From Methanomassiliicoccaceae archaeon (GTDB lineage: Archaea; Thermoplasmatota; Thermoplasmata; Methanomassiliicoccales; Methanomethylophilaceae): a stretch of DNA of 39,020 nt. Each line of letters begins with the position of its first letter. The first letter of the stretch is position 1. This document shows, piece after piece, positions 1,652 to 38,690 of the stretch. A program made the position numbers and the translations under genes. The notes below the pieces were generated by a model. That model made no database searches and was not told the DNA's origin. It saw only the letters and a list, made by a program, of their open reading frames with translations. Where the stretch lies: positions 1 through 39,020 of the forward strand of contig JAEEOP010000018.1 of the NCBI GenBank assembly GCA_016284295.1. The letters run 5' to 3'.

Positions 1652-2998
1652 CTATCCTTCGCGGTACGCCAGGGCCTTCCGGAGGAAGTTGTAGGGGACG
1701 TCGGGGTTCGAATAGAAGTACAGATGAGGGTATCCTGCGACCAGGCCGCCCTCCTCGTGCATACACATGTACTCCTTGCCGTTGGTCTTGACGGCCTTCC
1801 AGGAATCCCCGCAGTTGTCACTGTCCCAGTAGTGGAATTCGTGACCTTTGACAGGACCGTCCCTGAGCACCGATCCGGGGTCGTCGGAGGACACGGTTAT
1901 GTATCCGAACCTGGAGAGCTTCCCTGTGTTCCTGACCTCCCCGCGGATGACGCCGCAGGCGTCATGCATGTTGCCGTCCGCATCCTCGAGCCTATCGTGA
2001 AGGTACATGAAACCGCCGCATTCGGCGAGGCAGGGCATCCCGGCGGCGATATGCTCGCGGATGTCCTTCATCATCGATTTGTTGGCGCACAGCTTGGAAG
2101 CGTGCAGTTCAGGGTATCCTCCCGAGAGGACTATGGCGTCCACATCGGGCAGATGCTCATCATTGAGAGGGGAGAACTCCACGATCTCCGCGCCCATGGA
2201 CCTCATGATCTCCACGTTGTCCTCGTATGTGAAGCAGAACACGTCGTCCTGCGCGAGGCCTACCCTGACGGGCCTATCGAGCCTCCTGATCTCAGGGGCC
2301 TTGGCCTCCATCTCCGGAGCGGAGGATGCGAGGTCGATGAGGGCATCTATGTCCAGTGACTCCTCCAGGACCTCCGCCAGCTGGTTGAGCTTCTCGCGGA
2401 GCTCCTCTATCTCGTTGGGAAGGACCAGACCCAGATGCCTGCTCTCCAGCACCAGGTGGCTGACCTTGGGGACGTACCCTATCGGCCTGATGCCCATCTT
2501 TTCCACCTCAGGAGCGATCATGTCGAAGACCTTCTGGGACATCTGGTTGAATATGACGCCCCTGATGTTGTTCTCCGTGAAACCCAGGAATCCCTTCAGC
2601 GTGGCGAGGTTGGATATGCTCGCCCCTTTAGCATTTATCAGAAGCACCACGGGGGCGTCGAGCTTCCTCGATACGTCGTGGGAGCTTGCCTCCATGCTGA
2701 GCACGCTGTTGCCGTCGTAGAAGCCCATGACCCCCTCGATAACGGAGATGTCGTTCTCGGATGCGGTCCTGGAGAACAGGTACCTGAGGGTGTCGTCGTC
2801 CACGAAGAACGCGTCCAGGTTCTTGGACCTGGTCCCGATGACCCTGCTGTGGAACATCGGGTCGATGTAATCCGGGCCGCACTTGAAGGATGCGACCTTT
2901 AGTCCTCTGTTGACCAGCGCCTGCAGGATACCGCAGGTCACGAGGGTCTTCCCGCTGCCACTCGAAGGCGCGGCTATCAAGAACCTCGGGAGAGTCAT
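1652..2998 (-). CDS. cbiA: Cobyrinate a,c-diamide synthase (ends TAG-TGA)
   Basis: CbiA amidates the a and c carboxylates of cobyrinate using glutamine and ATP, the last corrin step encoded in this window. The N-terminal half is a dethiobiotin-synthetase-like ATPase with P-loop APSSGSGKT (about residues 9-17) and KCGPDYIDP. The C-terminal half is a class I glutamine amidotransferase with the nucleophile region MPCLAECGGFMYL and a late HFHYWD/HLYFYSNP region. It has 448 residues, normal for the family. The ATG at 2998 overlaps the cbiT stop as ATGA; the frame stays open further upstream only as an antisense-like artefact of the CbiT region. The frame meets TAG at 1652-1654 and TGA at 1649-1651, so if UAG is read as an amino acid the protein gains one residue. 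Confidence 0.95.
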   Translation of the reverse strand: MTLPRFLIAAPSSGSGKTLVTCGILQALVNRGLKVASFKCGPDYIDPMFHSRVIGTRSKNLDAFFVDDDTLRYLFSRTASENDISVIEGVMGFYDGNSVLSMEASSHDVSRKLDAPVVLLINAKGASISNLATLKGFLGFTENNIRGVIFNQMSQKVFDMIAPEVEKMGIRPIGYVPKVSHLVLESRHLGLVLPNEIEELREKLNQLAEVLEESLDIDALIDLASSAPEMEAKAPEIRRLDRPVRVGLAQDDVFCFTYEDNVEIMRSMGAEIVEFSPLNDEHLPDVDAIVLSGGYPELHASKLCANKSMMKDIREHIAAGMPCLAECGGFMYLHDRLEDADGNMHDACGVIRGEVRNTGKLSRFGYITVSSDDPGSVLRDGPVKGHEFHYWDSDNCGDSWKAVKTNGKEYMCMHEEGGLVAGYPHLYFYSNPDVPYNFLRKALAYREG

Positions 2999-4977
2999 CT
3001 GCCCCTCACCACTGCGATGTACACCGGATTCTGAGCAGTCATCAGATGGTACCTTCCGAGCTTCCTCGCCTTGGAGACGTTGATGCATGAGAAGTCCTCC
3101 TCCACCAGGCCGAACTCCTTTATGACCTGGGTGGTCTCCTCCAGGGTCTCGATGGTGACAGAGTTGATCACGATCCTTATGTCGGGGTTCTTGTCCAGGA
3201 GGCACTTCACGATGTCCTTCAGGTTGCCCGAGGATCCTCCGATGAACGCGTGCGTCGGGACGGGGAGGTCCGTCATGGCCTCCGGTGCCAGACCCCTTAT
3301 CACCTGCAGGTTCGGCGTCTTGAACTTCAGCTTGTTGACCTCTATCAGGTCGGCGGCGGGATCCTCCTTCTCTATCGCATAGACCATTCCGTTCACGGCG
3401 CAGAGCGCCATCTCGATCGAGACGGAGCCGGTACCCGCCCCGATATCGTAGATCACCGAATCGTCGCTGAGCTTCAGCTTGGCCACGGACAGCGCCCTGA
3501 CCTCGCTCTTCGTCATGGGGGCGTCGCCCCTGGTGAACTCCTCGTCGGGGATGCTTATCGGGTTCGATGTAACTGGGGAATCGTTCTCGATCAATGCCAC
3601 GCAGAGCTTGCCGAAATGCTCCTCCAGGATCTGCTGCGGTGTGCCGGTGAAGACCTTCTCCGTCTCGTATCCGAAGTCCTGGCCGACGGTGATCCTGACG
3701 TCCATCCCGTACTCGATGAACTACCTCGCCATGGCGTGGACGGTGTCCTCCTCGGACAGCAGCGTGAACAGCTTGCGGTGGATCCTGCTGAGGCCTATGA
3801 GGTTTGCGTCCCTTCCGTGGGCGCTCGTCATGTACACGTCCTGCCAGGATACGCCTATCTTGGAGCACAGGTACACCGCTGATGATATGCCCGGTTCGGT
3901 GTGGACGTCGAACTCGTCGCGGTCGATGCTGTCGAGAAGCTTCCTGGCCCCACTGTAGAACCCTATGTCCCCGGACATCAGGACCGCCACGTTGCGGTAG
4001 TTCGGATTGTCCCTCAGGTACGCGATTATCGCATCGGACCTGTACTCCTCAAGCACGGTCTTCCCCATGGCCACCGATTCGACCATCCTCTTGGCCCCGA
4101 CCACCAGGTCGGAGCAGTCTATCCTCTGCTTGGCGGAGAGGGTCAGCCCGTTGCCGCCCATCCCGATGCCGATTATGCTTATCTGCCTCTTGGCCGAATC
4201 ATCTGTCCTGTCCATCTTCAATCCCAACCTGCCCTCCAGGAGCTCCAGTACCTCTCCGTAGGTCCTGCCCTCCTCCTTGGGCCTCTCTATGAGCACCACG
4301 GTCGCTCCGGCCCTGATGGCCGCCCTGACCTTGTCCTCGTATCCGCCGGATGTCCCCGAATCCTTGGTGACCAGGTACTTCGCCCCTATCTGCTTCAGCG
4401 TGGCGTAGTTGGTCTCCTCGGAGAACGGCCCCTGGGCGCAGATCAGGTTCTTGCCTGAGAACCCGTACTCGGCGCACTTCTGGACCGATTCGATCGTAGA
4501 CAGGACCCTTGCGGTCACCCTCTCCTTGTAGTCCGGGATCTGGGTGTAGAGGGCTATGTCCTTGGACCCCGTGGACGCCAGTATGTTGCCGTCCTTGTCC
4601 TTCAGGTAATCGACCGCCTCCTGGACGGACGACACCTTCACTATGGAATCGGAATCCGTGTCGGACTCCGACCTCTTCAATCTGATGTATTCTGCACCGG
4701 TGGCCTCGCAGGCCTGCCTAATATGCTCGGTGATGTTCATCGCGTACGGATGGGTGGCGTCGACCACGATGCCGTAGCCGTTCTTGCGTATGACATCGGC
4801 TATCCCCTCCGCGCCCCCGCAGCTCCCGACCTTGACGTCGATGTTGGGATCATAGCCCATCACCTCGGCGCCGTACTCGGTGGCCACCCTGACATGGACG
4901 TCCGCTCCCGCGTCCGCCAGCGCCTTGGACAGCCTCCTCCCCTCGGATGTACCGGAGAAGATGAACACACTGTTCAA
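2995..4977 (-). CDS. cbiJET: CbiJ-CbiE-CbiT fusion with in-frame UAG (codon 419)
   Basis: One continuous frame of 660 residues if UAG is decoded. Residues 1-252 are CbiJ (precorrin-6A reductase, cobalt pathway): FSGTSEGRRLSKAL, DATHPYAMNITEHIR. Residues about 264-465 are CbiE (C5 methyltransferase): ISIIGIGMGGNGLTL, MSGDIGFYSGAR, TEPGISSAVYLC, TSAHGRD. Residues about 473-660 are CbiT (C15 methylation and C12 decarboxylation): the Rossmann motif DIGAGTGSVSIEMA at 511-524. The TAG (3721-3723) lies in the C-terminal half of CbiE; after it the same frame gives FIEYGMDVRITVGQDFGYET, the expected end of CbiE, and then CbiT. A conventional reading makes a CbiJ-truncated-CbiE protein (3721-4977) and a CbiT with a stray CbiE tail (2995-3705). 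The start is TTG, overlapping the cbiG stop as TTGA. Confidence 0.9.
3721..3723 (-). other. In-frame UAG in CbiE domain (candidate pyrrolysine codon)
   Basis: The minus strand reads GCC ATG GCG AGG TAG TTC ATC GAG. The frames on the two sides are identical, since the two halves start 1272 bases (424 codons) apart, so no frameshift is involved. The residue falls in the helix before the last strands of CbiE. Confidence 0.85.
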
Positions 4978-6002
4978 AGGAACTTCACCTCCATCGGCCT
5001 GCGGCAGATGGCGATGGTCATGCCGTCCTTCGCGGTCTTCCTCCTGATCAGCTCGCCGCCGAACGGCCTGACGGCCGACCTCTCGCAGACGCAGTCCACG
5101 GACGTGACTGATTTTACGAACTCAGACTTAGAGAAATCCCCTTCGAGGGACATTAGCTCCTCCGACGTGTAGAAGTTGGCCGGCACCCTGTACCTTCTGG
5201 CGAGTGACAGGATCGCCTCCTCGTCCTTCTTCAGGTCCACGCTGCATACGGCCCCGACGCGCTGGGATGGTATGCCGTCCTCCTTGAGGACGGACTCCAC
5301 GAACTCCTGCATCTTCCCGGGATCGGTGCCGCGCTTGCAGCCCACCCCCAGTATGATGTCCATGGGCACCAGCCTCATGGTAGTCCCGAATGGTTCTTTC
5401 GCGATGTCCATAGAGATGCTGACCCCGAACTCGCCGGAATCCGCCCTGGTCAGTCCGGCCGGCAGGTCCCCTGCGACGGGTATGTCTGATGTGAAACCGA
5501 CGAACGCATCGTCCAGTACCCTGACTGAAACATCCTGCGCCGTCCTGAGCCCCATGATCCTCAGGTTGTTGACCGTTGCGAACGTATCGACCGAGAACTT
5601 GCCGTTGAGGTCCGTGGCCGTCGTGATTATGGGCTCGGAGCCCAGGCGCTCCGCGATCCTCGCGGTCAGGGCGTTGGCACCTCCAATATGCCCTGCCAGA
5701 AGGGCGACGGCCCAGCGGCCGTGCTCGTCCATGCCGATGATGGCCGGGTCAACCGTCTTGGCCCTGATGTACGGCGCGATGTACCTGACGGCTATCCCTA
5801 TGGCGCCGATGTAGACTATCGCATCGCACTCCTCGAAGGACTTCCCTGTCCATTCTCCTGCCTTCTCCTCGATGCGCTGCACGCCCAGCGTGTCGCATTG
5901 CGTCTTGGCGAATATCCTGAGATCCTCCTCGGGGAACGCCTCCTTGAGCCTGATCACGGTCCTGCAACCGTTGGTTGAGAATGCTATCGCGTTGATCCTC
6001 AT
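4974..6002 (-). CDS. cbiG: Cobalt-precorrin-5A hydrolase
   Basis: CbiG opens the delta-lactone of cobalt-precorrin-5A and releases acetaldehyde. The 342-residue protein has the central domain signature MDEHGRWAVALLAGHIGGAN with LTARIA following, and the C-terminal domain opens with ILGVGCKRGT, as in the CbiG/CobE fold. The ATG at 6002 overlaps the cbiD stop as ATGA, and its own TGA overlaps the TTG start of cbiJET, so the genes appear translationally coupled. Confidence 0.95.
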   Translation of the reverse strand: MRINAIAFSTNGCRTVIRLKEAFPEEDLRIFAKTQCDTLGVQRIEEKAGEWTGKSFEECDAIVYIGAIGIAVRYIAPYIRAKTVDPAIIGMDEHGRWAVALLAGHIGGANALTARIAERLGSEPIITTATDLNGKFSVDTFATVNNLRIMGLRTAQDVSVRVLDDAFVGFTSDIPVAGDLPAGLTRADSGEFGVSISMDIAKEPFGTTMRLVPMDIILGVGCKRGTDPGKMQEFVESVLKEDGIPSQRVGAVCSVDLKKDEEAILSLARRYRVPANFYTSEELMSLEGDFSKSEFVKSVTSVDCVCERSAVRPFGGELIRRKTAKDGMTIAICRRPMEVKFL

Positions 6003-7132
6003 AACGACTCCTTCCTGATCTCGTCCAGCATCTCGTCGGCCAGGCTGGTCTTTCCAAGCAGCCCGTACACCGATGAGAACATCACCGCCGCGGTCCTGAT
6101 GCTACCGCCCGTGCGGTGGTTCATGTAGAACTCTATCTTGTCTATCAATAGTTTGGAGACATCCTCGATGAGATGCTCCTCGTTGATGACGTCCAACGCG
6201 TCATCCGTGGATATGCAGTCCATTATGCGGGTGACCGCGGTCATGCTCGCACCCGCCACAGCCGCATTCGCCGCCAGGATCTCCATCCTCGCATCGGCGT
6301 TGCGGGAGTGCGTGTTCATTATGCCTGCTGCGACCTTGACTATCTTCCCCAGGTTGGACACCAGCACGATGTCGCGCTTGATCTCGCATGCATAGTCGAG
6401 CATCTCACCGACGAAGTTGCTGCACTTCACCGCGGTCTCCGGGTCTATCCCCGGAAGGCTCTCGGAGAACTCCTTGCCGTAGTTGCCCGGCACCACCAGC
6501 AGGACCTGGTTGCCCTGGGAGCGCATGTTCATCTCGGTCTTGATCGTGTTCACCAGGGCTGTCTCGCTCATTGGTTCCACGATACCACTCGTTCCCAGGA
6601 TGGATATCCCGCCCACTATTCCAAGGCGGGGATTGAACGTCTTCTGCGCGATCTGCTCCCCCTCCGGCACGGATATGACTATGTCGAACCCGCCTTTGTA
6701 ATCGCTGGAGAAGCGCACGTCCTCAACGGCCTCCGCGATCATGCTCCTGGGGACGTGGTTGATGGCGGCGTTCCCGACGGGCTGGTCGAGTCCCTTCCTG
6801 GTGACCCTTCCCACACCGATGCCTCCGTCAATGCTTATCCCGGATTCCGCCTTGGTCACCTTGGAGTACACCAGCGTCCCATGGGTCGCGTCTATGTCAT
6901 CCCCGCCATCCTTCCTGACGGCGCACGATACCGAATCGCCTTCGAAGCGCATGTCCTCCACCGGCAGATCGAGGATGATCCCCTTCGGAGTGTGTATGCT
7001 CACGCGCTCCACCTTCTTCCCGGTCAGGAGCGCTTCAGTAGCGGCCTTCGTGGCCGCTGCGGCGCATGTACCGGTGGTGTGTCCGCGCTTAAGCATCTTG
7101 TTGTTCACGAAAACGTAGGAGTCATCACTCAT
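5999..7132 (-). CDS. cbiD: Cobalt-precorrin-5B C1-methyltransferase
   Basis: CbiD methylates C1 of the contracted corrin in the anaerobic pathway. The signature LKRGHTTGTCAAAATKAA lies near the N terminus, followed by DGGDDIDATHG, GGIGVGRVTRKGL and GTSGIVEPMSE, all typical of the family. Starting at 7132 gives 377 residues, the usual length; an ATG at 7150 would add six. No clear ribosome-binding site precedes either start. An AT-rich promoter lies 10-45 bp upstream, so a leaderless or near-leaderless message is likely. It is the first gene of the leftward cobalamin operon. Stop TGA. Confidence 0.95.
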   Translation of the reverse strand: MSDDSYVFVNNKMLKRGHTTGTCAAAATKAATEALLTGKKVERVSIHTPKGIILDLPVEDMRFEGDSVSCAVRKDGGDDIDATHGTLVYSKVTKAESGISIDGGIGVGRVTRKGLDQPVGNAAINHVPRSMIAEAVEDVRFSSDYKGGFDIVISVPEGEQIAQKTFNPRLGIVGGISILGTSGIVEPMSETALVNTIKTEMNMRSQGNQVLLVVPGNYGKEFSESLPGIDPETAVKCSNFVGEMLDYACEIKRDIVLVSNLGKIVKVAAGIMNTHSRNADARMEILAANAAVAGASMTAVTRIMDCISTDDALDVINEEHLIEDVSKLLIDKIEFYMNHRTGGSIRTAAVMFSSVYGLLGKTSLADEMLDEIRKESL

Positions 7133-7209
7133 GTTGCAAACCGTATCCATCCTATATACTACACTATTTATTTCTGTTTGGATTACCCATCCCAATAGAA
7201 GTTGAGTGC
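7133..7209. promoter_or_regulatory. Divergent cobalamin promoter region (cbiD / cbiL)
   Basis: This 77-bp AT-rich stretch separates the two opposed cobalamin operons. Rightward, CTATATACTA (about 7152-7161) lies about 50 bp before cbiL. Leftward, AGAAATAAATAG (about 7164-7175 on the minus strand) is about 25 bp before the possible ATG at 7150 and about 40 bp before that at 7132. I saw no cobalamin riboswitch; the space is too short for one. Confidence 0.55.
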
Positions 7210-7917
7210 ATGAAAGGTAAGTTATTCGGAATCAGTGTGGGGCCAGGAGACCCAGACCTGCTGACCCTGAAGGCCAAGCAGATATTGGATGAGTGCGACA
7301 TAATCGCCTACCCGGTGAAGACCGCGGGTGAAGGCAGCGTCGCACTCAACATCATCAAACCCAACGTCGACCTGTCCAACAAGGAGGTCAGAGAGTACGT
7401 GTTCTCCATGAACCCCGACTACACGGTCCGCGAGCAGGGCTGGAAGAAAGCCTACGACGACATCGCGTCGGCACTGGAGTCCGGGAAGGATATCGCCATG
7501 ATCACTCTCGGCGACCTCAGCATATTCAGCACCTACATGCGCATTGACAGGATGATCAAGTCGAGGGGGTTCGAGACCGAACTGGTCCCCGGAGTGCCCT
7601 CGTTCTGCCACGGCGCGTCCCTGGCCGGCATACCCCTGACCATGGGCGAGGAGGCCCTGGTCGTCATCCCGTTCAACACCGACAGGTCGGAGGCCCTCGA
7701 GAACGCCCTGGACAACTACGAGAACATCGTTGTCATGAAGGCCTTCAAGTCCGTCGACAGGATCGCGGACATGGTCGTCTCCAAAGGGAGGGACATCTCC
7801 TGCATCACGGTCATGAGCAACATCGGGATGGATGACGAATACATCGGACCCGTCATCAGGGGACGCGAATACGGTTACTTTACAACGCTTTTAATCAAGA
7901 AGGAGATGAAGGAATGA
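7210..7917 (+). CDS. cbiL: Cobalt-factor II C20-methyltransferase
   Basis: CbiL transfers a methyl group from SAM to C20 of cobalt-factor II. The 235-residue protein has the tetrapyrrole-methylase N terminus GISVGPGDPDLLTLKA, the second motif ITLGDLSIFSTYMRI and the central ELVPGVPSFCHGASLAGIPL, which fits the CbiL/CobI subgroup. It is the first gene of the rightward operon, and its TGA overlaps the cbiF ATG as ATGA. Confidence 0.95.
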   Translation: MKGKLFGISVGPGDPDLLTLKAKQILDECDIIAYPVKTAGEGSVALNIIKPNVDLSNKEVREYVFSMNPDYTVREQGWKKAYDDIASALESGKDIAMITLGDLSIFSTYMRIDRMIKSRGFETELVPGVPSFCHGASLAGIPLTMGEEALVVIPFNTDRSEALENALDNYENIVVMKAFKSVDRIADMVVSKGRDISCITVMSNIGMDDEYIGPVIRGREYGYFTTLLIKKEMKE

Positions 7918-8678
7918 TTACTTTTATCGGAGCAGGACCCGGAGACCCGGAATTGATCACAATCAAAGGAAAGAACAAGATCCTCGAGGCGGACGTCATC
8001 ATCTACGCCGGATCGCTGGTCAACCCCGCGGTCCTCGACGGTCACAAGGCCGATGCGAAGATCTACGACAGCGCATACATGCACCTGGACGAGGTCATCG
8101 AGGTCATGAAGAAGGCCGAGGACGAGGGCAAGAAGTGCGTCCGCGTGCACACCGGCGACCCCGCCATCTACGGCGCCCACAGGGAGCAGATGGACAGGCT
8201 CGACGAGCTGGGAATCGACTACGAGGTCATCCCCGGAGTCAGCTCCGCGTTCGGTACCGCCGCCGTCCTCAAGAAGGAGTACACCCTGCCCGGAGAGAAC
8301 CAGAGCCAGACCGTCATCTTCACCAGGATGGAGGGAAGGACCCCCATGCCCCCGGGAGAGAAGCTTGTCGACCTCGCGAGGCACAGGGCAACGATGGTCA
8401 TCTTCCTGTCCGTCGGATTCCTCGACGAGCTCTCCAAGCAGTGCATCGAGGGAGGATATCCCCCGGAGACCCCCGTCGCCGTCGTCTACAAAGCGACATG
8501 GCCCGACCAGAAGATCGTCATCGGAACGCTTGCCGACATCGAGCAGAAGGTCAAGGAGGCAGGCATCACCAAGACCGCCCTCACCGTGGTCGGAAACTTC
8601 CTGCAGGGCGACTACAACCTTTCGAAGCTCTACGACAAGCACTTCACCACCGAGTTCCGCAAGGCGGTGGATGAATGA
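7914..8678 (+). CDS. cbiF: Cobalt-precorrin-4 C11-methyltransferase
   Basis: CbiF methylates C11 of the corrinoid. This 254-residue tetrapyrrole methylase has FIGAGPGDPELITIKGK, VIIYAGSLVN, VHTGDPAIYGAHREQMD, and EVIPGVSSAFGTAAVL; the AGS and GDP.IYGA motifs are characteristic of CbiF/CobM. It overlaps cbiL upstream and cbiH downstream by 4 bp each. Confidence 0.95.
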   Translation: MITFIGAGPGDPELITIKGKNKILEADVIIYAGSLVNPAVLDGHKADAKIYDSAYMHLDEVIEVMKKAEDEGKKCVRVHTGDPAIYGAHREQMDRLDELGIDYEVIPGVSSAFGTAAVLKKEYTLPGENQSQTVIFTRMEGRTPMPPGEKLVDLARHRATMVIFLSVGFLDELSKQCIEGGYPPETPVAVVYKATWPDQKIVIGTLADIEQKVKEAGITKTALTVVGNFLQGDYNLSKLYDKHFTTEFRKAVDE

Positions 8679-9409: not shown

Positions 9410-9418
9410 GGTGAGGAA

Positions 9419-10048: not shown

Positions 10049-10061
10049 ATGGAGAGATAGC

Positions 10062-10856: not shown

Positions 10857-10886
10857 AGAAACAATAATCGAAAACAGATTTTGAAA

Positions 10887-14917: not shown

Positions 14918-15121
14918 ATGGCCACCATAAGACTGCCCGATCACTCGCACTGCGCTTACTGCGGAGACCCCATACCCTTCGGGGAGGAATACTGCAACGA
15001 GGAATGCAGGAACAACGAGAGGATCAGGGTCGCCAAGGAGAAGAGGAAGGATTACATCTTCTACGGGGTCGCTGTTGCGACCATCCTCATCCTCTTCGCG
15101 ATAAGGGCCTTAACACGCTGA
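14918..15121 (+). CDS. Small Zn-ribbon membrane protein (DUF2116-like)
   Basis: This 67-residue archaeal protein has a treble-clef zinc site, CAYCGDPIPFGEEYCNEEC, at residues 12-30, a charged linker (NNERIRVAKEKRKDY), and one C-terminal membrane helix (FYGVAVATILILFAIRAL). The cysteine pattern CxxCGxPIPxGexYC matches the DUF2116 family, of unknown function. The zinc domain would face the cytoplasm with the helix as tail anchor. Its 3' end overlaps the C-terminal coding region of folP on the other strand if folP is read through its UAG. Stop TGA. Confidence 0.85.
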   Translation: MATIRLPDHSHCAYCGDPIPFGEEYCNEECRNNERIRVAKEKRKDYIFYGVAVATILILFAIRALTR

Positions 15122-15887
15122 CCGTACGGGCCACGTCGTGCACGCGGACTATGTCCGCTCCGGAATCCACAGCCATCTACGACACCATTGCGGATGCGTC
15201 GTCCACGTCCATATCGGGATAGAACTGCCTGACGAACCTCTTGCGCGAGACCCCGACCAGGATTGCGTGGTCCTTCCCGAGGAAGGAGCAGTCCTTAGCT
15301 ATGGACAGGTTCTGATCCGGCGTCTTCCCGAATCCGATGCCGGGATCGACGATTATCCTTCCGTCGGGTATGCCGGCATCCACCGCCCTGGCGATTTGGC
15401 GGTCCATGAAACCTTTGATCTGTTCCCTGTAATCGGCACCCATCTCAGTGCTGTGCGTGTCGACGGGACTGCCGTTCATGTGCCCGATGATGACGGTCGC
15501 ATCCGAACCGGCGCAGACCTCCATCATGCCCTGCGCGCGGAGGCCGTTGACATCGTTTATGATGTCGGCGCCCATGGAGATGCATACGGATGCCACCTCG
15601 GGCTTCATCGTATCGATGGATATCGGAACGGACACCGACGGCAGAAGATCCCTTAGAACCGGCTCCAGACGGTCCAGCTCCTCCGAGGAGGATACCGGCT
15701 CGCTGCCGGGACGGGTGGATTCCCCGCCGATGTCGATTATGTCGGCACCCTGATCGATCATCTCGAAGGCATGCTCCAATGCCTTGTCCCTGTCGGTCCA
15801 TCTGCCGCCGTCCGAGAAAGAATCTGGCGTCAGATTGAGGATGCCCATCACCAGGGGGGCGGTCCCCCCTAAGATGATACGGCTCAT
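15087..15887 (-). CDS. folP: Dihydropteroate synthase with in-frame UAG (codon 237)
   Basis: FolP condenses a pterin pyrophosphate with p-aminobenzoate. The motifs run in order: GILNLTPDSFSDGG (15-28), IGGESTRPG (53-61), ADIINDVNGL, GHMNGSP, DPGIGFGKT (181-189) and GVSRKRF. At codon 237 the frame meets TAG (15177-15179), then continues in the same frame as MAVDSGADIVRVHDVARTV to a TGA at 15087. RVHD (248-251) is the strictly conserved pyrophosphate-binding end of the family, so termination at UAG would remove part of the active site. Full length is 266 residues, normal for FolP. The ATG overlaps the stop of the upstream HdrD-like gene (ATGA). The extended end overlaps the convergent Zn-ribbon gene by 35 bp. 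Confidence 0.9.
15177..15179 (-). other. In-frame UAG in FolP (candidate pyrrolysine codon)
   Basis: The minus strand reads ATG GTG TCC TAG ATG GCT GTG GAT. The protein family continues directly across it, at the start of the last helix before the GADIVRVHDV strand. Confidence 0.85.
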
Positions 15888-30320: not shown

Positions 30321-30329
30321 ACGCTAAAC

Positions 30330-31331: not shown

Positions 31332-31353
31332 TGTTCGACAGAATGCGTATTGG

Positions 31354-31361
31354 TTTTATAT
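31354..31361 (+). promoter_or_regulatory. TATA box of the GGGP synthase gene
   Basis: TTTTATAT lies about 65 bp before the ATG at 31422, leaving a leader of about 35 nucleotides. Confidence 0.5.
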
Positions 31362-31421
31362 GAAACGGACAATCAACGATTACGCGCGGGTATAAACTCC
31401 GTCGCGTTGACGTGATAGACG

Positions 31422-32159: not shown

Positions 32160-32160
32160 G

Positions 32161-32526
32161 ATGTCATACGACGACCAGCCCAGCTACAACACGCCGATCT
32201 CCCCCCGCCAGTTCATTTGGAACACTCCGGAGGAGAGGGCCGCCGGGATCAACAACGACCTCAAGGTCGCTGCACGCAGGTACCTGTGCCCCAACTGCGG
32301 AAGGGAGTTCAGCCTCTTCCAGTCCAGGGCGATCGCCTGCAAATACTGTCCCAAAGCGGATCAGAACTGCCCCAACGTCAGATGCCCCTACTGTGACAAG
32401 GAATACCCCATCAGGGGATTCATCGTCCCCGACAACAACCCGGGAGCGAAGGCGGATCAGGTGCACATGACTAACTATGCGCAGGACGTCTTCAACCGCT
32501 TCTCCGACTCGTACAACAGAAGATGA
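32161..32526 (+). CDS. Zinc-ribbon protein of unknown function
   Basis: A 121-residue hypothetical protein with three closely spaced cysteine pairs: CPNCGREFSLF (43-53), ACKYCPKADQNCPNVRCPYC (59-78). This suggests two zinc ribbons. The ends are polar and likely disordered. It follows the GGGP synthase gene by one base, so it is probably co-transcribed, but nothing in it points to lipid metabolism. Its TGA abuts the stop of the convergent ATPase gene with no spacing. Confidence 0.75.
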   Translation: MSYDDQPSYNTPISPRQFIWNTPEERAAGINNDLKVAARRYLCPNCGREFSLFQSRAIACKYCPKADQNCPNVRCPYCDKEYPIRGFIVPDNNPGAKADQVHMTNYAQDVFNRFSDSYNRR

Positions 32527-34158
32527 TCATCTCTTCTGGATCGCAAGCATCTGAGGATGCCTGTTGACGACCGCAGCTACGTCTATCGCCCTTATCTGAG
32601 CATGGTGCATGCCGGTGCCGCTGTCCTTTGCGTCATCGGTCTCTCTAAGCATCGCTATTGCCGCGTTGCAGGTCTCCAGCATGTTCCTGGACCCGTCCAT
32701 GAGGTCCTTCATCACTGCGATGGCATCGGCCACGGTGCTAGTCTGAGAAATATCGTAAAGGGCTGCTACGGGCACGTGGACCTTGAACTCGCCTATCTCT
32801 ATGGTCCTAATCTCCTGGGCCACGACGTTGACGTCCCTGTGACCCTTCTCGAAGACCATCCCCTTGGAAACTGGCGACCTCTCTATCGGCCTGCGGTACT
32901 CCGCGGTGAGAGGCTTCCTCTCCACGTCGATACCCTTGACTTTCATCCCTTCCACGAGCAAGACGTTGTCCGCGGCCCTTATGACGGATTCGTCACCGGA
33001 TACGACCATCAGTGAGATTCCATTAGCAGCCATGGATCCGGCCAACTCGGACACTGATACCATCGATTCCTCTCCCAGGAACGATCTTCTGAGGACGCAA
33101 GGGTTGGAGTACTCCTCATCCATCAGGATCAGCTCGGAGCCCATCTCCACCGCCTCGGATATCGACAGGAGCTCGGACATCGGGGAAGATACGAACTCCC
33201 TCTTCGCCGCGGACGTGTCCTCGAACTCTGCGGAGTTCTCGACGAACATCGATATGTCCACGGAATCCGCCGGGCGGTTGGGCTCTGCGATGACGTAGGC
33301 CGCATCAGGGGATGTGACCACATATTCCCTTCCGTCGCCGGGGATGTGCGCGTAGACGCCCGACAGGATCGAATCGAGCAGTGTGGACTTCCCGCTCCTG
33401 CTCGGCCCGGATATGACTGTGAATCCCTTGGGAATGCCCATTCCCTGGATCGAGTCGCCGTAGGGCACCTCGAACGTCACCCTGAACCTCTGGTCGGACT
33501 CGAAAGGCACGGCATCGACCATCGGGGCCATGTCGTCCTCGCGTCTCGGAAGGATGGAGCCATCAGCGATGAATGCGACGAGCCCCTTCTCCTTCAATTG
33601 GGACCTTATGTACTCCGCATTCTCATAGGTCTGCAGATGGTTGTAGACCTTGGACTGCTTGTATGCGGAGTAGTACAATGATTCTGAGATGATCGTCTTG
33701 ATCCTCTCTATCAGGAGGTTCATCGCCGCCGCGCTGACCTTGTTGCCGTCCGCGGGAAGATCGGCGGTGAAGCGGGCCTCCACATAGTACTGCGTGATCC
33801 TGATGCTCCCCCTCTCCAGGATCTCCTGGCCGGGACGGGGGATGAACACCTCCCCTCCGGAGGTCTTCGGTATAGGTGAACGTGCATGCGTGCGGGCTGA
33901 CTCCCTGAAGCGCCTGGCGATGAGGTCCCTGAGGGCGATCTCCCTCAGCTTGGTGTCGTACATGTCCGCCGGGAACCCCGCCTTCTTCATCGGGACCCTG
34001 ATGCGGATGTTCGTATGGCCCATCCTGTCGTTCTGGATGTCGTCGAAGATGAGCTCGAAATCGTCGAAAACGAAATTGTTCTGAATGCCCTTGTACTTCT
34101 GGAAGGGTTTTCCATCGGCATTCTTGAGAGTCTTGAAGAGGATCTCTTCGGATGCCAT
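32527..34158 (-). CDS. ABC-class ATPase (COG3044-like)
   Basis: This 543-residue protein resembles the predicted ATPases of the ABC class (COG3044), widespread and poorly understood. The N-terminal domain has the FDDFELIFDDIQNDRMG and GQEILERGSIRITQYYVEAR patterns of the family. The Walker A is ISGPSRSGKSTLLDSILSGV, followed by the family's YAHIPGDGREYVVTSPDA. LILMDEEYSNPCVLRR takes the Walker B position. No membrane segments are seen, so it is cytosolic and not a transporter. It lies 13 bp after the Lys/Pro/Ala-tailed gene, probably in one transcript. Stop TGA. Confidence 0.8.
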   Translation of the reverse strand: MASEEILFKTLKNADGKPFQKYKGIQNNFVFDDFELIFDDIQNDRMGHTNIRIRVPMKKAGFPADMYDTKLREIALRDLIARRFRESARTHARSPIPKTSGGEVFIPRPGQEILERGSIRITQYYVEARFTADLPADGNKVSAAAMNLLIERIKTIISESLYYSAYKQSKVYNHLQTYENAEYIRSQLKEKGLVAFIADGSILPRREDDMAPMVDAVPFESDQRFRVTFEVPYGDSIQGMGIPKGFTVISGPSRSGKSTLLDSILSGVYAHIPGDGREYVVTSPDAAYVIAEPNRPADSVDISMFVENSAEFEDTSAAKREFVSSPMSELLSISEAVEMGSELILMDEEYSNPCVLRRSFLGEESMVSVSELAGSMAANGISLMVVSGDESVIRAADNVLLVEGMKVKGIDVERKPLTAEYRRPIERSPVSKGMVFEKGHRDVNVVAQEIRTIEIGEFKVHVPVAALYDISQTSTVADAIAVMKDLMDGSRNMLETCNAAIAMLRETDDAKDSGTGMHHAQIRAIDVAAVVNRHPQMLAIQKR

Positions 34159-34171
34159 CTGGGAAACCTCT

Positions 34172-34648
34172 TCAGCGGAACTTACTGTACCTGTCCAGCA
34201 ACTTGCAGATCTTGTCGTACTCGTCCTTGGAGAGGTCGTCAGCGTCGAGGAAGGTCTTCGCGAACTCCTTCGCGGCCTTCGTGGAGATACGGGATGCCTT
34301 CGCGATGACCGATGCGAGGAACGATGATGCCTTCGCAGGATCCATCCTTGAAGCGGACAGGATCTCGTTCATGTCGTACTTGAAGGGGGCCAGCTTGTGC
34401 GTGTTCAGCATCGACTGCTTCTTGGTCGATTCCTTCGTCTTCACAGGCTTGTTCTTCTTGGGACCCTTGTCGCCGCCGTACGAACTGCCGGTCTGGGGGA
34501 CAGGCTTCTGTACAGTCTTCTGTACCGGCTTCTGTCCGGTCTTCTGGGCAGGCTTCTGCGCGGGCTTCGACGCCGGTTTGGTCGCCGGTTTGGTCGCCGG
34601 CTTCTGTGCGGGCTTTGCGGGCCTTGTCTTTTCTGTATCTCCAGGCAA
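34172..34648 (-). CDS. Lys/Pro/Ala-tailed small helical protein
   Basis: A 158-residue protein of unknown family. Residues 9-54 are a low-complexity tail of KPA(T/Q/S) and QK(P/T)V repeats. Residues 60-80 are a basic linker, and residues about 85-158 look helical (DMNEILSASRM, ASSFLASVIAKASRISTKAA, DEYDKICKLLDRY). The tail resembles histone H1-type or nucleic-acid-binding tails by composition only. The start is TTG, with GGAG about nine bases upstream and a TATA box about 40 bp upstream; no ATG precedes the conserved part. It is the first gene of a pair with the ABC-class ATPase. Stop TGA. Confidence 0.65.
   Translation of the reverse strand: MPGDTEKTRPAKPAQKPATKPATKPASKPAQKPAQKTGQKPVQKTVQKPVPQTGSSYGGDKGPKKNKPVKTKESTKKQSMLNTHKLAPFKYDMNEILSASRMDPAKASSFLASVIAKASRISTKAAKEFAKTFLDADDLSKDEYDKICKLLDRYSKFR
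34499..34624 (-). repeat. Degenerate 12-bp repeats encoding KPAx units
   Basis: The DNA here is a run of imperfect 12-base units coding K-P-A-T, K-P-A-S, K-P-A-Q and related tetrapeptides (residues 9-50). Two adjacent units at about 34575-34599 are nearly identical, so slippage can change the copy number. Confidence 0.7.
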
Positions 34649-34683
34649 GAGTATAACTCCGTTGGACGTCGAAAAGTGCTTTA

Positions 34684-34695
34684 CCTATATAAATA
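34684..34695 (-). promoter_or_regulatory. TATA box of the Lys/Pro/Ala-tailed protein gene
   Basis: The minus strand reads TATTTATATAGG, about 40 bp before the TTG start at 34648. Confidence 0.55.
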
Positions 34696-34744
34696 CGCTA
34701 TTATAAAGCCAAACTTTTCACAGATGTGCACGGAATTCGCGAGT

Positions 34745-34826
34745 GCGGGGGATGGGATTCGAACCCATGAACCACTAAGGACTGGATCTTAAGTCCAGCG
34801 CCTTTGGCCAACTCGGCTACCCCCGC
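34745..34826 (-). tRNA. tRNA-Leu (anticodon UAA)
   Basis: This 82-base class II tRNA is on the minus strand. The acceptor GCGGGGG pairs with CCCCCGC read from the two ends, the D arm has AGCCGAGTTGGCCAAAGGC, the anticodon stem-loop is CTGGA-CTTAAGA-TCCAG (anticodon TAA), a variable arm follows, and the T loop has GGTTCGAATCC. CCA is not encoded. No intron. Confidence 0.96.
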
Positions 34827-34847
34827 CTGAGTGTCAATCGTATCATG

Positions 34848-34857
34848 GTTAATAAAG
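34848..34857 (-). promoter_or_regulatory. TATA box of tRNA-Leu
   Basis: The minus strand reads CCTTTATTAA, about 27 bp before the tRNA 5' end at 34826. Confidence 0.55.
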
Positions 34858-34903
34858 GGTACACGGTCACTGTCGGCCGTTCATACCAGCATATGAGAAA
34901 TAC

Positions 34904-35317
34904 ATGCATGCCAATCACTTAGCGATGGCCTACAGGATACCCAGGGACGATGATGTTTCGAAGGCGATAGACAACTGCCTCACCCGCTCACCCAGGGTCA
35001 AGTCGCTCAAGGTTCTGACCGACCTCGTCCAGACTGAGCTCCTGTGCATCGACGAGGGGTACCGCGTGAGCGGCGAGCGCATCAGGCGCGTGGGCATCAA
35101 AAAGGGACTTTTCGACCTGGAGATCAGGTATGCGCATACCAACAGGACCGTCCCCTACGAGAGGTGCCCGGTATGCAGGAACAAGCTGGAATCCGTGAGG
35201 AACAGGACCCTTGACTGGAAGACCGTGGAGCTGTCCCGCGACTGCAAGGTGTGCGGCTATTCGGCGAAGGCGGATGCCGGCAGGCCCGCCAGGTACATCA
35301 TCACCAGAAGGAACTGA
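34904..35317 (+). CDS. Hypothetical protein: helical (HTH-like) domain plus Zn ribbon
   Basis: This 137-residue protein (130 if the ATG at 34925 is the start) is of unknown family. The N-terminal part is helical and resembles a small winged-helix (SKAIDNCLTR, SLKVLTDLVQTELLCID, VSGERIRRVGIKKG). The C-terminal part has four cysteines in CPVCRNKL and CKVCGYSAK, a Zn ribbon. This suggests a nucleic-acid-binding protein. Its TGA is followed one base later by the ATG of the next gene. Confidence 0.7.
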   Translation: MHANHLAMAYRIPRDDDVSKAIDNCLTRSPRVKSLKVLTDLVQTELLCIDEGYRVSGERIRRVGIKKGLFDLEIRYAHTNRTVPYERCPVCRNKLESVRNRTLDWKTVELSRDCKVCGYSAKADAGRPARYIITRRN

Positions 35318-35318
35318 C

Positions 35319-35585
35319 ATGGACCGCATCGCCGATCTGAAGAGGGCGGAGCAGCTGCTCAACGAGGCGGCGGACCTCATCGATTCCTCGCTCAGGATGT
35401 CCGGCATGGAATCGCGTACCGGCGACAGCACGGAAACGATCAGGAGGATCGCCTCCGATAAAGATGATGCAGGCAGCCTCCGCAACATCATCCTGGACAT
35501 GGAGTACCGCGAGAGGGAGCAGCCCTTATGGACACAGCCCCTTACATCCCCCAAGCATCAGTTCGAATTGAAGAAGGACGAATGA
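35319..35585 (+). CDS. Small acidic helical protein
   Basis: An 88-residue protein of unknown function. It is mostly helical and charged (ADLKRAEQLLNEAADLID, TETIRRIASDKDD). It starts one base after the upstream stop and is probably co-translated with the HTH/Zn-ribbon gene, so the two may act together. The codon use matches its neighbours. No family recognised. Stop TGA. Confidence 0.65.
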   Translation: MDRIADLKRAEQLLNEAADLIDSSLRMSGMESRTGDSTETIRRIASDKDDAGSLRNIILDMEYREREQPLWTQPLTSPKHQFELKKDE

Positions 35586-35699
35586 CCGTCCTTTGATGTT
35601 CAAGAACAGGAGGCCGTGAGGCCACTTTGTCAGGTTTATCGTTGGAGCCTCCGAGATGGTGAATGATGCCTGCATCCGCTCCGACACCAAACGCGAAGG

Positions 35700-35706
35700 T
35701 ATATGA
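35700..35706 (+). promoter_or_regulatory. TATA-like element before the ACT/Cdh-like operon
   Basis: TATATGA lies about 37 bp before the ATG at 35741. A weak GAAGGG ribosome-binding site lies between them. Confidence 0.45.
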
Positions 35707-35740
35707 CGGGCGAGGGTGTTAGGGTGCTGAAGGGTCTCCG

Positions 35741-36649
35741 ATGAAGATTTGGGAATTCGCGAAAGTAAATGGATCGTCCATCAAGGTGGACAATTGGATC
35801 TCGGACACGATAGGCATAGTGGACGGGGGATGCGTGTACAGCACCCTCTTCAAACACCCGGCCCAGGGACCCAAGGATTATGAGATCATGCTCTCCATGT
35901 TCCCTCAGGAGAACTACCGCACCCTCACCCACATCACGATGTACCTCGACGATGTGCCAGGCTCCAGTGCTCAGGCCGCTCATTTCCTGGCCGAGAAGGA
36001 CATCAACATCCTCAACTCCGTATCGCTCAACGGCATCTCCGACACGGTCATCGTGTGGAAGCTGATGGCGGACATGAACTTCGCCGGCGAAGGGGAGCTC
36101 CTGCTCGAGGACTTCAGGAACCTCAAGGACAACGGCGACCCCTCGGTCTCCAAAATCAAGAGGATCGAACTCAAGCCGGCAGAGGTCGGAAGGCTGTTCA
36201 AGGGCAAGGTCGACGAGGCCGGCAAGGAGGAGATCAGGCGCGGATACCCCACCACGATCAAGAACGGATGCTTCGACATAGCCGAGGTCTACGGGGACAT
36301 CCTCCCGGACCTGGACGGAAAGAACGTCCTCATCACCATGGATGCGGACTCGTGGATATGCTCCATCACGCTGTTCAAGGAAGAGACCAAGCTCGTCAAG
36401 GTCGGCCTGGAGATCCCGGACTGCCCCGGAAGCATCACGCAGGCCCTCAGCGTCATCGCCGACTGGAACGTGAACCTCATCTCGGTGTTCAGCAAGGTCA
36501 AGATCTGCTACGAGACCATGAGCCTGGAGCTGGTCATGGATGTCTGCAAGAGCAACAAGACCGCCTCCGAAATCAGGGACCTGCTTCCGACATGCCTCGA
36601 GAAGCTCAACGGCATATTCGTGCTCAAAGAGTTCGTAGAACTCATGTGA
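35741..36649 (+). CDS. Protein with two ACT domains
   Basis: This 302-residue protein shows two ACT-like regulatory domains. One is at about 65-112 (ITMYLDDVPGSSAQAAHFLA, DINILNSVSL). The other is at about 224-270 (VGLEIPDCPGSITQALSVIA, VNLISVFSKV), with the ligand-loop glycine present in both. The DxPGS start of each domain is the usual amino-acid-binding turn. No catalytic domain is seen, so a small-molecule sensor or regulator is likely. It is four bases upstream of a CdhD-like gene and probably regulates or accompanies that pathway. Stop TGA. Confidence 0.75.
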   Translation: MKIWEFAKVNGSSIKVDNWISDTIGIVDGGCVYSTLFKHPAQGPKDYEIMLSMFPQENYRTLTHITMYLDDVPGSSAQAAHFLAEKDINILNSVSLNGISDTVIVWKLMADMNFAGEGELLLEDFRNLKDNGDPSVSKIKRIELKPAEVGRLFKGKVDEAGKEEIRRGYPTTIKNGCFDIAEVYGDILPDLDGKNVLITMDADSWICSITLFKEETKLVKVGLEIPDCPGSITQALSVIADWNVNLISVFSKVKICYETMSLELVMDVCKSNKTASEIRDLLPTCLEKLNGIFVLKEFVELM

Positions 36650-36653
36650 TATC

Positions 36654-37487
36654 ATGGAACTCCCGAGGACCTCACGCTCCTACGGATCAGAGATAGAGGA
36701 GCTCATCGTCGGCAAAGGCGATTACATCATTGGAGGCGCCCGCAGCCCCCCGTTCCTGGAGCTGGACAACGCGAGGAACCGCAGGCCCGTCATCTTCGGG
36801 GAGGCCTACGATGATTTGGGACTCTACAACGAATCGGCAGCCTCCATGTTCTCCGGCCGCCAGAACGACATCGAGGAATGGGCGGTCATGTGGAAGGAGC
36901 TGGGCGCCGACGGCATATGCCTGAGGCTCACCAGACCAGACTCCCAAGAACTGGTCAAGCGCATAGCTGACAGGACCAGGATCCCCGTGATGGTCTCCGC
37001 AGATACGGACATCCTCAAAAAGACCGCGTCCGAAGTAGACGATTCCATCCTCATCCTATATTGCAGGGACGAGGCTCAGAGCCTGGAGATGTCCTCATAC
37101 TCCAACAATCACATACTGGTCGCCAACTGTGGCGACACCGATCCGCAGACCCTCTGTAGACGCATGCAGGAGCTTGGTGCCAGCAACATCATCGTGGACC
37201 TCGGCAAAGGGAAGATGGGGCCGTCCTTCAAGACCCTCAGGTCGAGGATCTCCTCCTACCGCATGGACGGTCTGAACGGTGTGCCGGACTCGCAACACAA
37301 CATAATCTGCGATGCCACGCCCTCGTGGGACGAGCACGGCCACGACGTTACCGCGAGGAAGGCATCGATGATCGAGGCCATGACCGCGCTGGGTGCGATG
37401 ATGGCCGGAGCCGACGTGATCGTCGTGAAAGGCCCCGGAGCCGCCGACATGGCGCGCGTGTACGGGGAGGAGCTGGCGGACCTATGA
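36654..37487 (+). CDS. CdhD-like TIM-barrel protein (CODH/ACS delta-subunit-like)
   Basis: This 277-residue protein resembles the TIM-barrel small subunit (CdhD/AcsD) of the corrinoid iron-sulfur protein of acetyl-CoA synthase. It has the opening GGARSPPFLELDNARNRRPV, then WAVMWKELGADGICLRLTRP, IPVMVSADTDILKKTASEVD, ILVANCGDTDPQTLCRRM and IIVDLGKGKMGP. It is shorter than CdhD (over 350 residues in complete systems) and no other CODH/ACS subunit is nearby. The assignment rests on motif order only. Its TGA overlaps the ATG of the CdhE-like gene. Confidence 0.65.
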   Translation: MELPRTSRSYGSEIEELIVGKGDYIIGGARSPPFLELDNARNRRPVIFGEAYDDLGLYNESAASMFSGRQNDIEEWAVMWKELGADGICLRLTRPDSQELVKRIADRTRIPVMVSADTDILKKTASEVDDSILILYCRDEAQSLEMSSYSNNHILVANCGDTDPQTLCRRMQELGASNIIVDLGKGKMGPSFKTLRSRISSYRMDGLNGVPDSQHNIICDATPSWDEHGHDVTARKASMIEAMTALGAMMAGADVIVVKGPGAADMARVYGEELADL

Positions 37488-38122
37488 TAGCACTAACGAT
37501 CTCCGACCTCATGGATGCGGACATGGCGGTCCTCCGCCTGTCGGAACTCAGGAAGAGGGTCTGCGACCACGGCGTCCCCGAAGCGGTCTGCATAAGGAAC
37601 GACAGCTTCTCGGACGAACCCTTCGTGACCATGACGGAACTTATAGGGACAATATGGGACGGCGTCCTGATCCTGGAGACGTCCGACCCGTCCATCGCAT
37701 CCAAGGCGCTGGTCCGCGTGATGGGCCGCAGGCCGATCCTGCTGGGAGCGACCGCGGACAACATCGATCAGTTCTCGATGACCGCCACGCTCTTCGACTG
37801 CCCCCTGTGCGTCAGCGCAGAGAGGCTGGAGGACCTCATGGACCTGTCCGCGAAGGCCTCATCGCTGGGGGTAGAGAACATCCTCCTGGACCCGATGATG
37901 AGGAACATGAAGCAATGCCTGGAGGTCTGCACGGACCTTCAGCGCCTGTCTGAAAGGATGCCTGATGCCGACCATCCAGTGATGGTCAGGACCTGGTCAG
38001 GAGAGTACGCCATGACGATGGCGGCCGTGTCCATCCTGTCGGGCGATGCGGTGGTCGTCACAGACGACCTGGACGAGGACAGCTGCGAGACCCTCGGGGT
38101 GCTCCAGGAATCTGTGAGATGA
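37484..38122 (+). CDS. CdhE-like TIM-barrel protein (CODH/ACS gamma-subunit-like)
   Basis: This 212-residue protein resembles the central TIM barrel of CdhE/AcsC, the large subunit of the corrinoid iron-sulfur protein. It has PILLGATADNIDQFSMTATL, DCPLCVSAERLEDLMDL, LGVENILLDPMMRNMKQCLE and MVRTWSGEYAMTMAAVSIL. The family's N-terminal 4Fe-4S domain and C-terminal B12-binding domain are missing, so it is about half the usual length. The ATG at 37484 overlaps the upstream stop (ATGA). Stop TGA. Confidence 0.65.
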   Translation: MIALTISDLMDADMAVLRLSELRKRVCDHGVPEAVCIRNDSFSDEPFVTMTELIGTIWDGVLILETSDPSIASKALVRVMGRRPILLGATADNIDQFSMTATLFDCPLCVSAERLEDLMDLSAKASSLGVENILLDPMMRNMKQCLEVCTDLQRLSERMPDADHPVMVRTWSGEYAMTMAAVSILSGDAVVVTDDLDEDSCETLGVLQESVR

Positions 38123-38126
38123 TACG

Positions 38127-38690
38127 TTGCACATCTCGAGATACACCAGGATCGACACTGTGACCGTCCCGGACTAGTTCATGTCCGTGATAACAGTGTC
38201 ATCGGACGGACCAGAGATAGATGCGGAGACGATAAGGGCCGGACTGGAGAAGGACAGGGAATCCCTTGACTACCTGGCAGTAGCCTCGGACACGGATCCG
38301 CTGGATTTTCCGGACCTCTACAAGGCGATCAAATCCGTAAGGCCCCGCGGACTGGATGTCCTGATAATCACTGGCGGGCACGACCCTCAGGTCCTGGACG
38401 ACACGGTGGGAGCAGGTTACGCCCATGCCGCCGACCTCCTGCTCGGAAGGGAGACCACCGAGGAGCAATTGGAGTGCCTGTCGATCCTTAGGGACAACAA
38501 ATGCAAGTTCGCCCTGACAGTGAACGCATCCGAGCACGACGAGGATTCCCTCAAGACCTTAGCGGAGAGATGCGGCAAATGCGCCATGTTCATCCTCAAG
38601 CAGGACAGAAAACATCCTGTGGATGCCAACAACATGTCCAAACTCACGGCTGCGGCCAAGAAGAGCAGCTGGAATGTCAAAGTGATATGA
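38127..38690 (+). CDS. Unknown protein of the Cdh-like operon, probable UAG-containing N terminus
   Basis: From the ATG at 38181 this is a 169-residue protein of unknown family, with alpha/beta character (LDVLIITGGHDPQVLDD, RETTEEQLECLSILRDNKCK, FALTVNASEHDEDSLKTLAE, CGKCAMFILKQD). Upstream, the same frame stays open back to a TTG at 38127, four bases after the previous stop, except for one TAG (38175-38177). The 15 codons after the TTG end in G or C in 13 cases, like real genes here and unlike intergenic DNA. I therefore favour a 187-residue protein with UAG as codon 17, an inference weaker than for CbiE and FolP. Stop TGA. Confidence 0.6.
38175..38177 (+). other. In-frame UAG near the start of the last gene
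   Basis: The frame reads GTC CCG GAC TAG TTC ATG TCC GTG. It is decoded only if the gene starts upstream of the ATG at 38181. Confidence 0.5.

What the first reader, a model, noticed from the sequence alone, without database searches (positions are those of the whole stretch)
1652..38690. UAG appears to be a sense codon across the whole window
Of 45 protein genes called, 43 end in TGA, one (radA) in TAA and none clearly in TAG. The one TAG-ending gene has TGA as its next codon. Two enzymes with well-known domains are split by TAG in one unchanged frame. If TAG were an ordinary stop, a share of genes should end in it. The Methanomassiliicoccales make pyrrolysine, so the simplest reading is that UAG is decoded as pyrrolysine in ordinary metabolic enzymes, not only in methylamine methyltransferases.
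Basis: partly seen in the sequence, partly recalled or inferred. Interest (0 to 1): 0.92.

Follow-up and report, generated by a model that had tools for sequence, protein, structure and literature searches.

The report
Amber codon read as pyrrolysine genome-wide
In this archaeon, from a group of gut methanogens, the codon UAG has all but ceased to be a stop signal and appears inside everyday metabolic enzymes, almost certainly to insert the rare amino acid pyrrolysine, a behaviour already reported for its close relatives.

Summary
My gene caller finds 40 ORFs in the window: 36 end in TGA, 1 in TAA, 3 in TAG. Two of the three TAGs lie inside conserved domains (CbiE of a CbiJ-CbiE-CbiT fusion; dihydropteroate synthase); the third is followed at once by TGA. 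One contig carries tRNA-Pyl(CUA), pylS, pylB, pylC, pylD and an mtmB with an in-frame TAG. In a 741 kb sample (40% of the genome) 14 of 602 ORFs end in TAG, against 67 of 428 in nine sampled relatives without a detected pylS. Of the 14, 7 have a domain model running across the TAG, 2 more continue on other evidence, 2 are uncertain, and 3 meet another stop after at most six further codons. So UAG is very probably translated as pyrrolysine throughout; no protein data exist here. This is published for relatives (Ca. M. alvus 2014, ISO4-H5 2016), and I recall a 2025 Science paper on a 'Pyl code' that the library searches did not find. Hence a new member of a known kind. Possibly new: the pattern across the family and release-factor changes (aromatic 56 to Q/E/S, Ser59 to Ala) in one TAG-poor clade; suggestive only.

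The parts
2995..4977 (-). CbiJ-CbiE-CbiT fusion (precorrin-6A reductase + C5,15-methyltransferase), 660 aa with TAG read through
   Evidence: dN/dS after the TAG 0.06-0.11 against four relatives
3721..3723 (-). in-frame TAG (codon 419) in CbiE
   Evidence: 29 fetched homologues have CAG (8), GAG (12) or other sense codons (9) in this column, none TAG
15087..15887 (-). dihydropteroate synthase, 266 aa with TAG read through
15177..15179 (-). in-frame TAG (codon 237) in dihydropteroate synthase, shortly before the conserved GADIVRVHDV segment
1649..2998 (-). CobB (cobyrinic acid a,c-diamide synthase) ending TAG TGA
1652..1654 (-). TAG with TGA as the next codon (1649-1651)

Best explanation
UAG is routinely translated, by tRNA-Pyl(CUA) charged by PylS with pyrrolysine made by PylBCD, wherever it occurs in an ordinary reading frame. 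TAG has been almost cleared from gene ends, so single mutations such as CAG, GAG, AAG or TCG to TAG inside a gene are tolerated at positions that accept many side chains, and a few ordinary enzymes carry one. Shown here: the pyl genes, the scarcity of TAG ends in the sample, in-frame TAG within conserved domains, purifying selection downstream in one gene, and sense codons at the same site in relatives. Inferred: that the inserted residue is pyrrolysine, that read-through is efficient in cells, and that the unsampled 60% of the genome behaves alike.
For: pyl cassette and tRNA-Pyl on contig C36 with mtmB, in the order mtmB, pylT, pylS, pylB, pylC, pylD. TAG ends: 14 of 602 in own sample, 10 of 324 in four other genomes of the genus, 4 of 303 in six pylS-bearing genomes of other genera of the family, against 33 of 207 in six members of the family and 31 of 179 in two of family f2 without a detected pylS. 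Of own 14 TAG ends, 7 have a family model crossing the TAG: CbiE, DHPS, Cys_Met_Meta_PP, MtmB, Oxidored_nitro twice, citrate synthase. The citrate synthase is collinear with solved structure 1vgp across the TAG, and a GxGHxxYxxxDPR stretch shared with it lies after the TAG. Control: the 3 'coding extension' cases among the 64 TAG ends of the eight pylS-lacking genomes, read by eye, are neighbouring genes or antisense. dN/dS after the CbiE TAG is 0.06-0.11, before it 0.13-0.17, against four relatives. Homologous codons: the six closest CbiE homologues have CAG x3, GAG x2, CTG x1; the six nearest DHPS read have R/A/K/K/S/S, with AAG twice and TCG twice. The only CUA tRNA that ARAGORN found in the window and the 40 stretches is tRNA-Pyl.
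Against: No protein data. Only 40% of the genome was read for gene ends and tRNAs. L080 8592-9164 may be an ordinary TAG end; L085 and L072 rest on a motif or on coding signal only. Three TAG ends keep a second stop soon after, which would also fit partial termination at UAG; such nearby second stops are common after TGA too (144 of 525). In G045 of the TAG-poor genus g13, 3 of 47 ORFs end in TAG, two of them near-identical copies of a transposon-type gene ending at the same place, which look like ordinary TAG ends. The release factor keeps E55 and Y125, residues reported to matter for UAG recognition (PMC4698671, passages).
Confidence: 0.9

Rival explanations
1. Dual use: UAG is read as pyrrolysine in competition with an unchanged release factor, so a sizeable share of CbiE, DHPS and similar chains is truncated. 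This is natural suppression with codon avoidance, not a reassigned codon. (It overlaps with the best explanation and differs in degree.)
For: aRF1 has one full-length match, intact, and keeps E55, NIKS and Y125. Three TAG ends retain a second stop. The review PMC9499178 (passages) describes competition between Pyl-tRNA and the release factor as the likely general mode. G094 of genus g21 has 0 of 52 TAG ends with an ordinary aRF1. G045 may use some TAG ends.
Against: In-frame TAG persists in genes of central metabolism (citrate synthase, DHPS), in one tested case with purifying selection after it (CbiE-CbiT), and few TAG ends remain to be protected.
Confidence: 0.35
2. UAG is an ordinary stop. 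The low count reflects GC-driven preference for TGA, and the split genes are pseudogenes or assembly errors.
For: TGA is the commonest end in 24 of the 25 genomes sampled (tied with TAA in G127; 38-96% of ends). The CbiE and DHPS TAGs were not found at the same site in any homologue read, so an error at a single site cannot be excluded.
Against: Most relatives of equal GC without the TAG shortage use it for 11-20% of ends. Frames stay open and conserved after TAG in seven genes with domain models; dN/dS 0.06-0.11 in the one tested. pyl genes present. Other species of the genus also show in-frame TAG (by eye).
Confidence: 0.03
3. UAG is translated as a standard amino acid by a suppressor tRNA other than tRNA-Pyl.
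For: The CbiE site is Gln or Glu in 21 of 29 homologues, and CAG or GAG to TAG is one step.
Against: The only CUA tRNA in the window and the 40 sampled stretches is tRNA-Pyl. The two sites differ in their usual residues (Q/E against K/R/S/L), as expected of tolerant positions. The other 60% of the genome was not scanned for tRNAs.
Confidence: 0.04

Closest known systems
'Candidatus Methanomethylophilus alvus' (Borrel et al. 2014, PMC4153887; passages read)
   Same: TAG ends 1.6% of genes; 16 predicted Pyl proteins besides methyltransferases, some highly conserved; pyl genes present
   Different: The passages name DGGGP synthase, MtxX, Cas1 and DUF531; I did not see CbiE, DHPS or citrate synthase there, but did not read the full table
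Rumen archaeon ISO4-H5 (PMC5011839; passages read)
   Same: 46 genes with in-frame amber codon, including a predicted nitrogenase gene and central metabolism genes; conserved pyl operon
   Different: Different species and, as far as the passages show, a different set of genes; 10 of its 46 are insertion sequence elements
Archaeal 'Pyl code' (Kivenson et al., Science 2025; recalled, seen in no call; library searches did not find it)
   Same: As recalled: all TAG codons read as pyrrolysine, supported by proteomics
   Different: I could not check whether this genus, or release-factor changes, are treated there
Methanosarcina-style pyrrolysine decoding
   Same: Same enzymes and tRNA, mtmB with in-frame TAG
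   Different: There about 4-5% of genes end in TAG (PMC4153887 passage); here hardly any true TAG end was found in the sample

Membership tests
Archaeal Pyl code (UAG = pyrrolysine throughout) | tRNA-Pyl(CUA), PylS and PylBCD encoded | tested here: met
   the four proteins are over their curated cut-offs
Archaeal Pyl code (UAG = pyrrolysine throughout) | TAG nearly absent as a gene end | tested here: met
   14 of 602 ORFs, of which 7 to 9 are really internal; sample is 40% of the genome
Archaeal Pyl code (UAG = pyrrolysine throughout) | in-frame TAG within conserved domains of proteins other than methylamine methyltransferases | tested here: met
   6 of the 7 domain-spanning cases
Archaeal Pyl code (UAG = pyrrolysine throughout) | pyrrolysine detected at UAG by mass spectrometry | not testable with these tools
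   no protein data
Archaeal Pyl code (UAG = pyrrolysine throughout) | no other CUA tRNA in the genome | tested here: inconclusive
   none besides tRNA-Pyl in the window and 40 stretches; rest not scanned
Full codon reassignment (release factor no longer reads UAG) | aRF1 altered at residues known to be needed for UAG | tested here: inconclusive
   E55, NIKS and Y125 kept; neighbours 56 and 59 changed in the clade, but similar residues occur in other archaeal families
Methanosarcina-style limited Pyl decoding | a real share (about 4-5%) of genes ends at TAG | tested here: not met
   3 TAG ends with a second stop soon after and 2 uncertain among 602 ORFs of the sample

The most novel reading that the evidence does not exclude
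UAG was reassigned step by step in one family of gut methanogens. TAG stops were cleared first (one sampled genome each of genera g21 and g22, which keep Tyr at aRF1 position 56). Then, in the clade of genera g1 and g13-g16, the only release factor changed beside the codon-reading residue E55 (aromatic 56 to Gln/Glu/Ser, Ser59 to Ala), weakening UAG termination and turning suppression into true reassignment to a 62-sense-codon code. Genera that lost pylS (g12, g18, g20) reused TAG as a stop.
Probability: 0.2. Interest if true: 0.75.

Novelty: new member of a known kind. Interest (0 to 1): 0.4.

Why it matters
Annotation with table 11 will cut citrate synthase, DHPS, CbiE-CbiT and nitrogenase-like proteins of such archaea in two. 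The family also offers a natural series (pyl absent with TAG stops; pyl present with TAG stops; pyl present with hardly any TAG stops; release factor changed) in which the order of events in a codon reassignment can be tested.

Tried and rejected
PylS N-terminal family: not found; a shortened synthetase is reported for this order (PMC3941956, abstract passage), so no evidence against. 'Coding extension' as a stand-alone test: the eight pylS-lacking genomes also give 3 such cases among 64 TAG ends, which read by eye are a neighbouring gene or antisense, so I relied on domain models instead. Second-stop enrichment: not present overall (own TAG 3 of 14, own TGA 144 of 525), so dropped as an argument. 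aRF1 signature: position 56 (human numbering, recalled; gapless by eye) is Q/E/S in 35 of 35 rows of the g1, g13-g16 clade and Y/F in 36 and L in 2 of the other 38 rows, but H/A/V with Ala59 occurs in 3 of 19 readable sequences from outside the order (20 fetched, 1 failed my pattern) and H with A in solved structure 4af1; the change has one origin in the aRF1 tree, so it cannot be separated from descent. Shared TAG sites: none seen for the window's sites. CbiE: 29 homologues fetched, none TAG at the site; 34 of 60 genomes had a match and only G000 an internal TAG. DHPS: of 116 of 120 genomes with a match only G117 besides G000 has a TAG, and its position was not looked up, 26 of 30 loci (own included) were read, 4 failed my pattern. 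The nitrogenase-like fusion: none of its close homologues shares a TAG; some distant copies carry one. Gene names for other species' cases are by eye. Some called ORFs there look antisense (G007 L031, G013 L037), so the caller has a few false genes. PMC8629427 (Codetta): passages only; the word Methanomassiliicoccales does not occur in its main text.
Full report
Observation. The window is contig C16 of an assembly of 1,857,069 bases in 45 contigs, 94.97% complete. With TAG counted as a stop, my codon-usage gene caller (ORFs of at least 90 aa, scored against codon use of long ORFs) finds 40 ORFs in the window: 36 end in TGA, 1 in TAA, 3 in TAG. One splits CbiE inside a CbiJ-CbiE-CbiT fusion (minus 2995-4977, TAG 3721-3723). 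One lies near the C-terminus of dihydropteroate synthase (minus 15087-15887, TAG 15177-15179). One ends cobB and is followed directly by TGA (1649-1654). Models run across the first two TAGs: CbiE TIGR02467 over residues 268-458 with the TAG at 419, DHPS TIGR01496 over 13-260 with the TAG at 237 (also Pfam).

Machinery. PylS (C-terminal family, 261 bits), PylB (438 bits), PylC (312 bits) and PylD (201 bits) are above their curated cut-offs and follow a tRNA-Pyl with anticodon CUA and an mtmB with one in-frame TAG, all within the first 7 kb of contig C36. ARAGORN found no other CUA tRNA in the window or in the 40 sampled stretches.

Genome-wide use. In it 602 ORFs were called: 531 TGA, 57 TAA, 14 TAG, or 2.3% TAG (a stricter threshold gave 13 of 588). 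The 14 were read one by one (13 of them first). Seven have a family model spanning the TAG: CbiE, DHPS, a Cys/Met PLP enzyme, MtmB, a NifH-NifD-like fusion, a NifK-like protein next to it, and citrate synthase. Two more continue on other grounds: L012, where the stretch across the TAG repeats an earlier part of the same protein (by eye; no Pfam match), and L072, a TPR protein with 938 further codons of coding character. L085 is a short ORF that looks by eye like the end of a tyrosine recombinase (no Pfam match), and L080 is unclear and may be a true TAG end. The remaining three (cobB, purD, and a short ORF in L029) meet another stop after 0, 1 and 6 further codons.

Comparison. The same caller on 24 other genomes of the order (20-100 kb each) gives TAG ends of 10 of 324 in four further genomes of the genus, 4 of 303 in six pylS-bearing genomes of other genera (g13, g14, g15, g16, g21, g22), 6 of 89 in two g19 genomes (one of which, G107, has no detected pylS), 14 of 75 in two pylS-bearing g17 genomes, 33 of 207 in six members of the family without a detected pylS, 31 of 179 in two genomes of family f2 without one, and 29 of 162 in two pylS-bearing f6 genomes (pylS). 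GC does not explain the split. pylS alone does not predict it either: g17 and f6 have pylS and still use TAG as a stop, and G107 without detected pylS uses little. Absence of pylS in incomplete genomes may be a gap in the assembly. Three of the four TAG ends in the pylS-bearing non-g1 genomes come from G045 (g13): two are near-identical copies of a transposon-type gene with the same end, the third may continue; the fourth, in G060, has a second stop 10 codons on. Among the 64 TAG ends of the eight pylS-lacking genomes 3 had a coding-like extension, read by eye as neighbouring genes or antisense; of the 5 such f6 cases two look like methylamine methyltransferases.

What relatives have at the sites. 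In CbiE, of 29 homologues 8 have CAG, 12 GAG and 9 another sense codon; CAG and GAG are each one step from TAG. In DHPS the column is free: R, A, K, K, S, S in the six nearest that were read, then L, R, K, W, C, V and others; AAG and TCG, both one step from TAG, occur in near relatives. Of 116 genomes with a DHPS match only one besides this one, G117, has a TAG in the gene. dN/dS between this genome and four relatives is 0.06-0.11 after the CbiE TAG and 0.13-0.17 before it, so the downstream part is under selection as protein. The sites look like tolerated chance mutations, not catalytic pyrrolysines (inference).

Release factor. aRF1 has one full-length, open match in this genome (a second, weak match covers only part of the model). 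In an alignment of 73 sequences the residue next to E55 is Gln, Glu or Ser in all 35 rows of the clade g1, g13-g16 and Tyr or Phe in 36 (Leu in 2) of the 38 others; position 59 is Ala in the clade, in g22 G118 and in f2 G036, and Ser in the rest. E55, the NIKS motif (NIRS in one row) and Y125 are kept. Published work holds E55 and Y125 to be needed for UAG, with E55Q lowering release at UAG most (PMC4698671, passages). The change has one origin in the aRF1 tree, so it may simply be descent. Non-aromatic residues with Ala59 also occur in 3 of 19 readable sequences from outside the order and in solved structure 4af1; TAG use there was not examined. G094 (g21) and G118 (g22) have 0 of 52 and 0 of 63 TAG ends with Tyr56, so TAG clearance does not need the change, and G045, which has the change (Glu56), may keep some TAG ends. 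This remains an idea for test.

Known or new. Borrel et al. 2014 already report 1.6% TAG ends and 16 extra predicted Pyl proteins in Ca. M. alvus, against about 11% in M. luminyensis with none (PMC4153887, passages), and the ISO4-H5 genome paper lists 46 genes with in-frame amber, including a nitrogenase gene (PMC5011839, passages). I recall a 2025 Science paper that names this the Pyl code on proteomic evidence; library searches did not find it. The present genome is thus a new member of a known kind. The closest named records are MAGs titled Thermoplasmata archaeon SIG9, SIG3 and SIG4 and Candidatus Methanomethylophilaceae archaeon from goat rumen and roe deer omasum, at up to 85% identity in CbiJET (the window's own record may be left out there). 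Release-factor changes in this clade did not turn up in one narrow library search on aRF1 with pyrrolysine and UAG (two papers listed, neither opened), which proves little.

Noticed in passing
L078 7832-11184 (G000 C7): A NifH-NifD-like fusion and a NifK-like gene lie side by side and each carries one in-frame TAG; the fusion has 4 matches in this genome and several in other genomes of the genus, some distant copies also with a TAG.
   Followed up: partly
family f1, genera g17 and g19: pylS is patchy within these genera, and two g17 genomes with pylS still end 14 of 75 ORFs in TAG: pyrrolysine genes with TAG kept as a stop.
   Followed up: partly
L034 6783-20000 (G007): A giant NRPS-like gene of another species of the genus has at least two in-frame TAGs (name by eye).
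   Followed up: no
L194 6173-7408 and 15857-17092 (G045): Two near-identical transposon-type genes end in TAG with non-coding-looking sequence after it: mobile genes may keep TAG as a stop in a TAG-poor genome.
   Followed up: no
G000 C27:4460-4621 and C36:4-165: Equal-scoring mtmB start fragments at two contig ends, suggesting further mtmB copies that broke the assembly.
   Followed up: no
window 2995-4977: CbiJ, CbiE and CbiT form one three-domain protein; long matches to the whole fusion occur across the genus and in a few other genera.
   Followed up: partly
L080 8295-9164: OmdA-family gene whose frame meets TAG after 190 codons with a weakly coding 98-codon extension; possibly the one ordinary TAG end in the sample.
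   Followed up: partly
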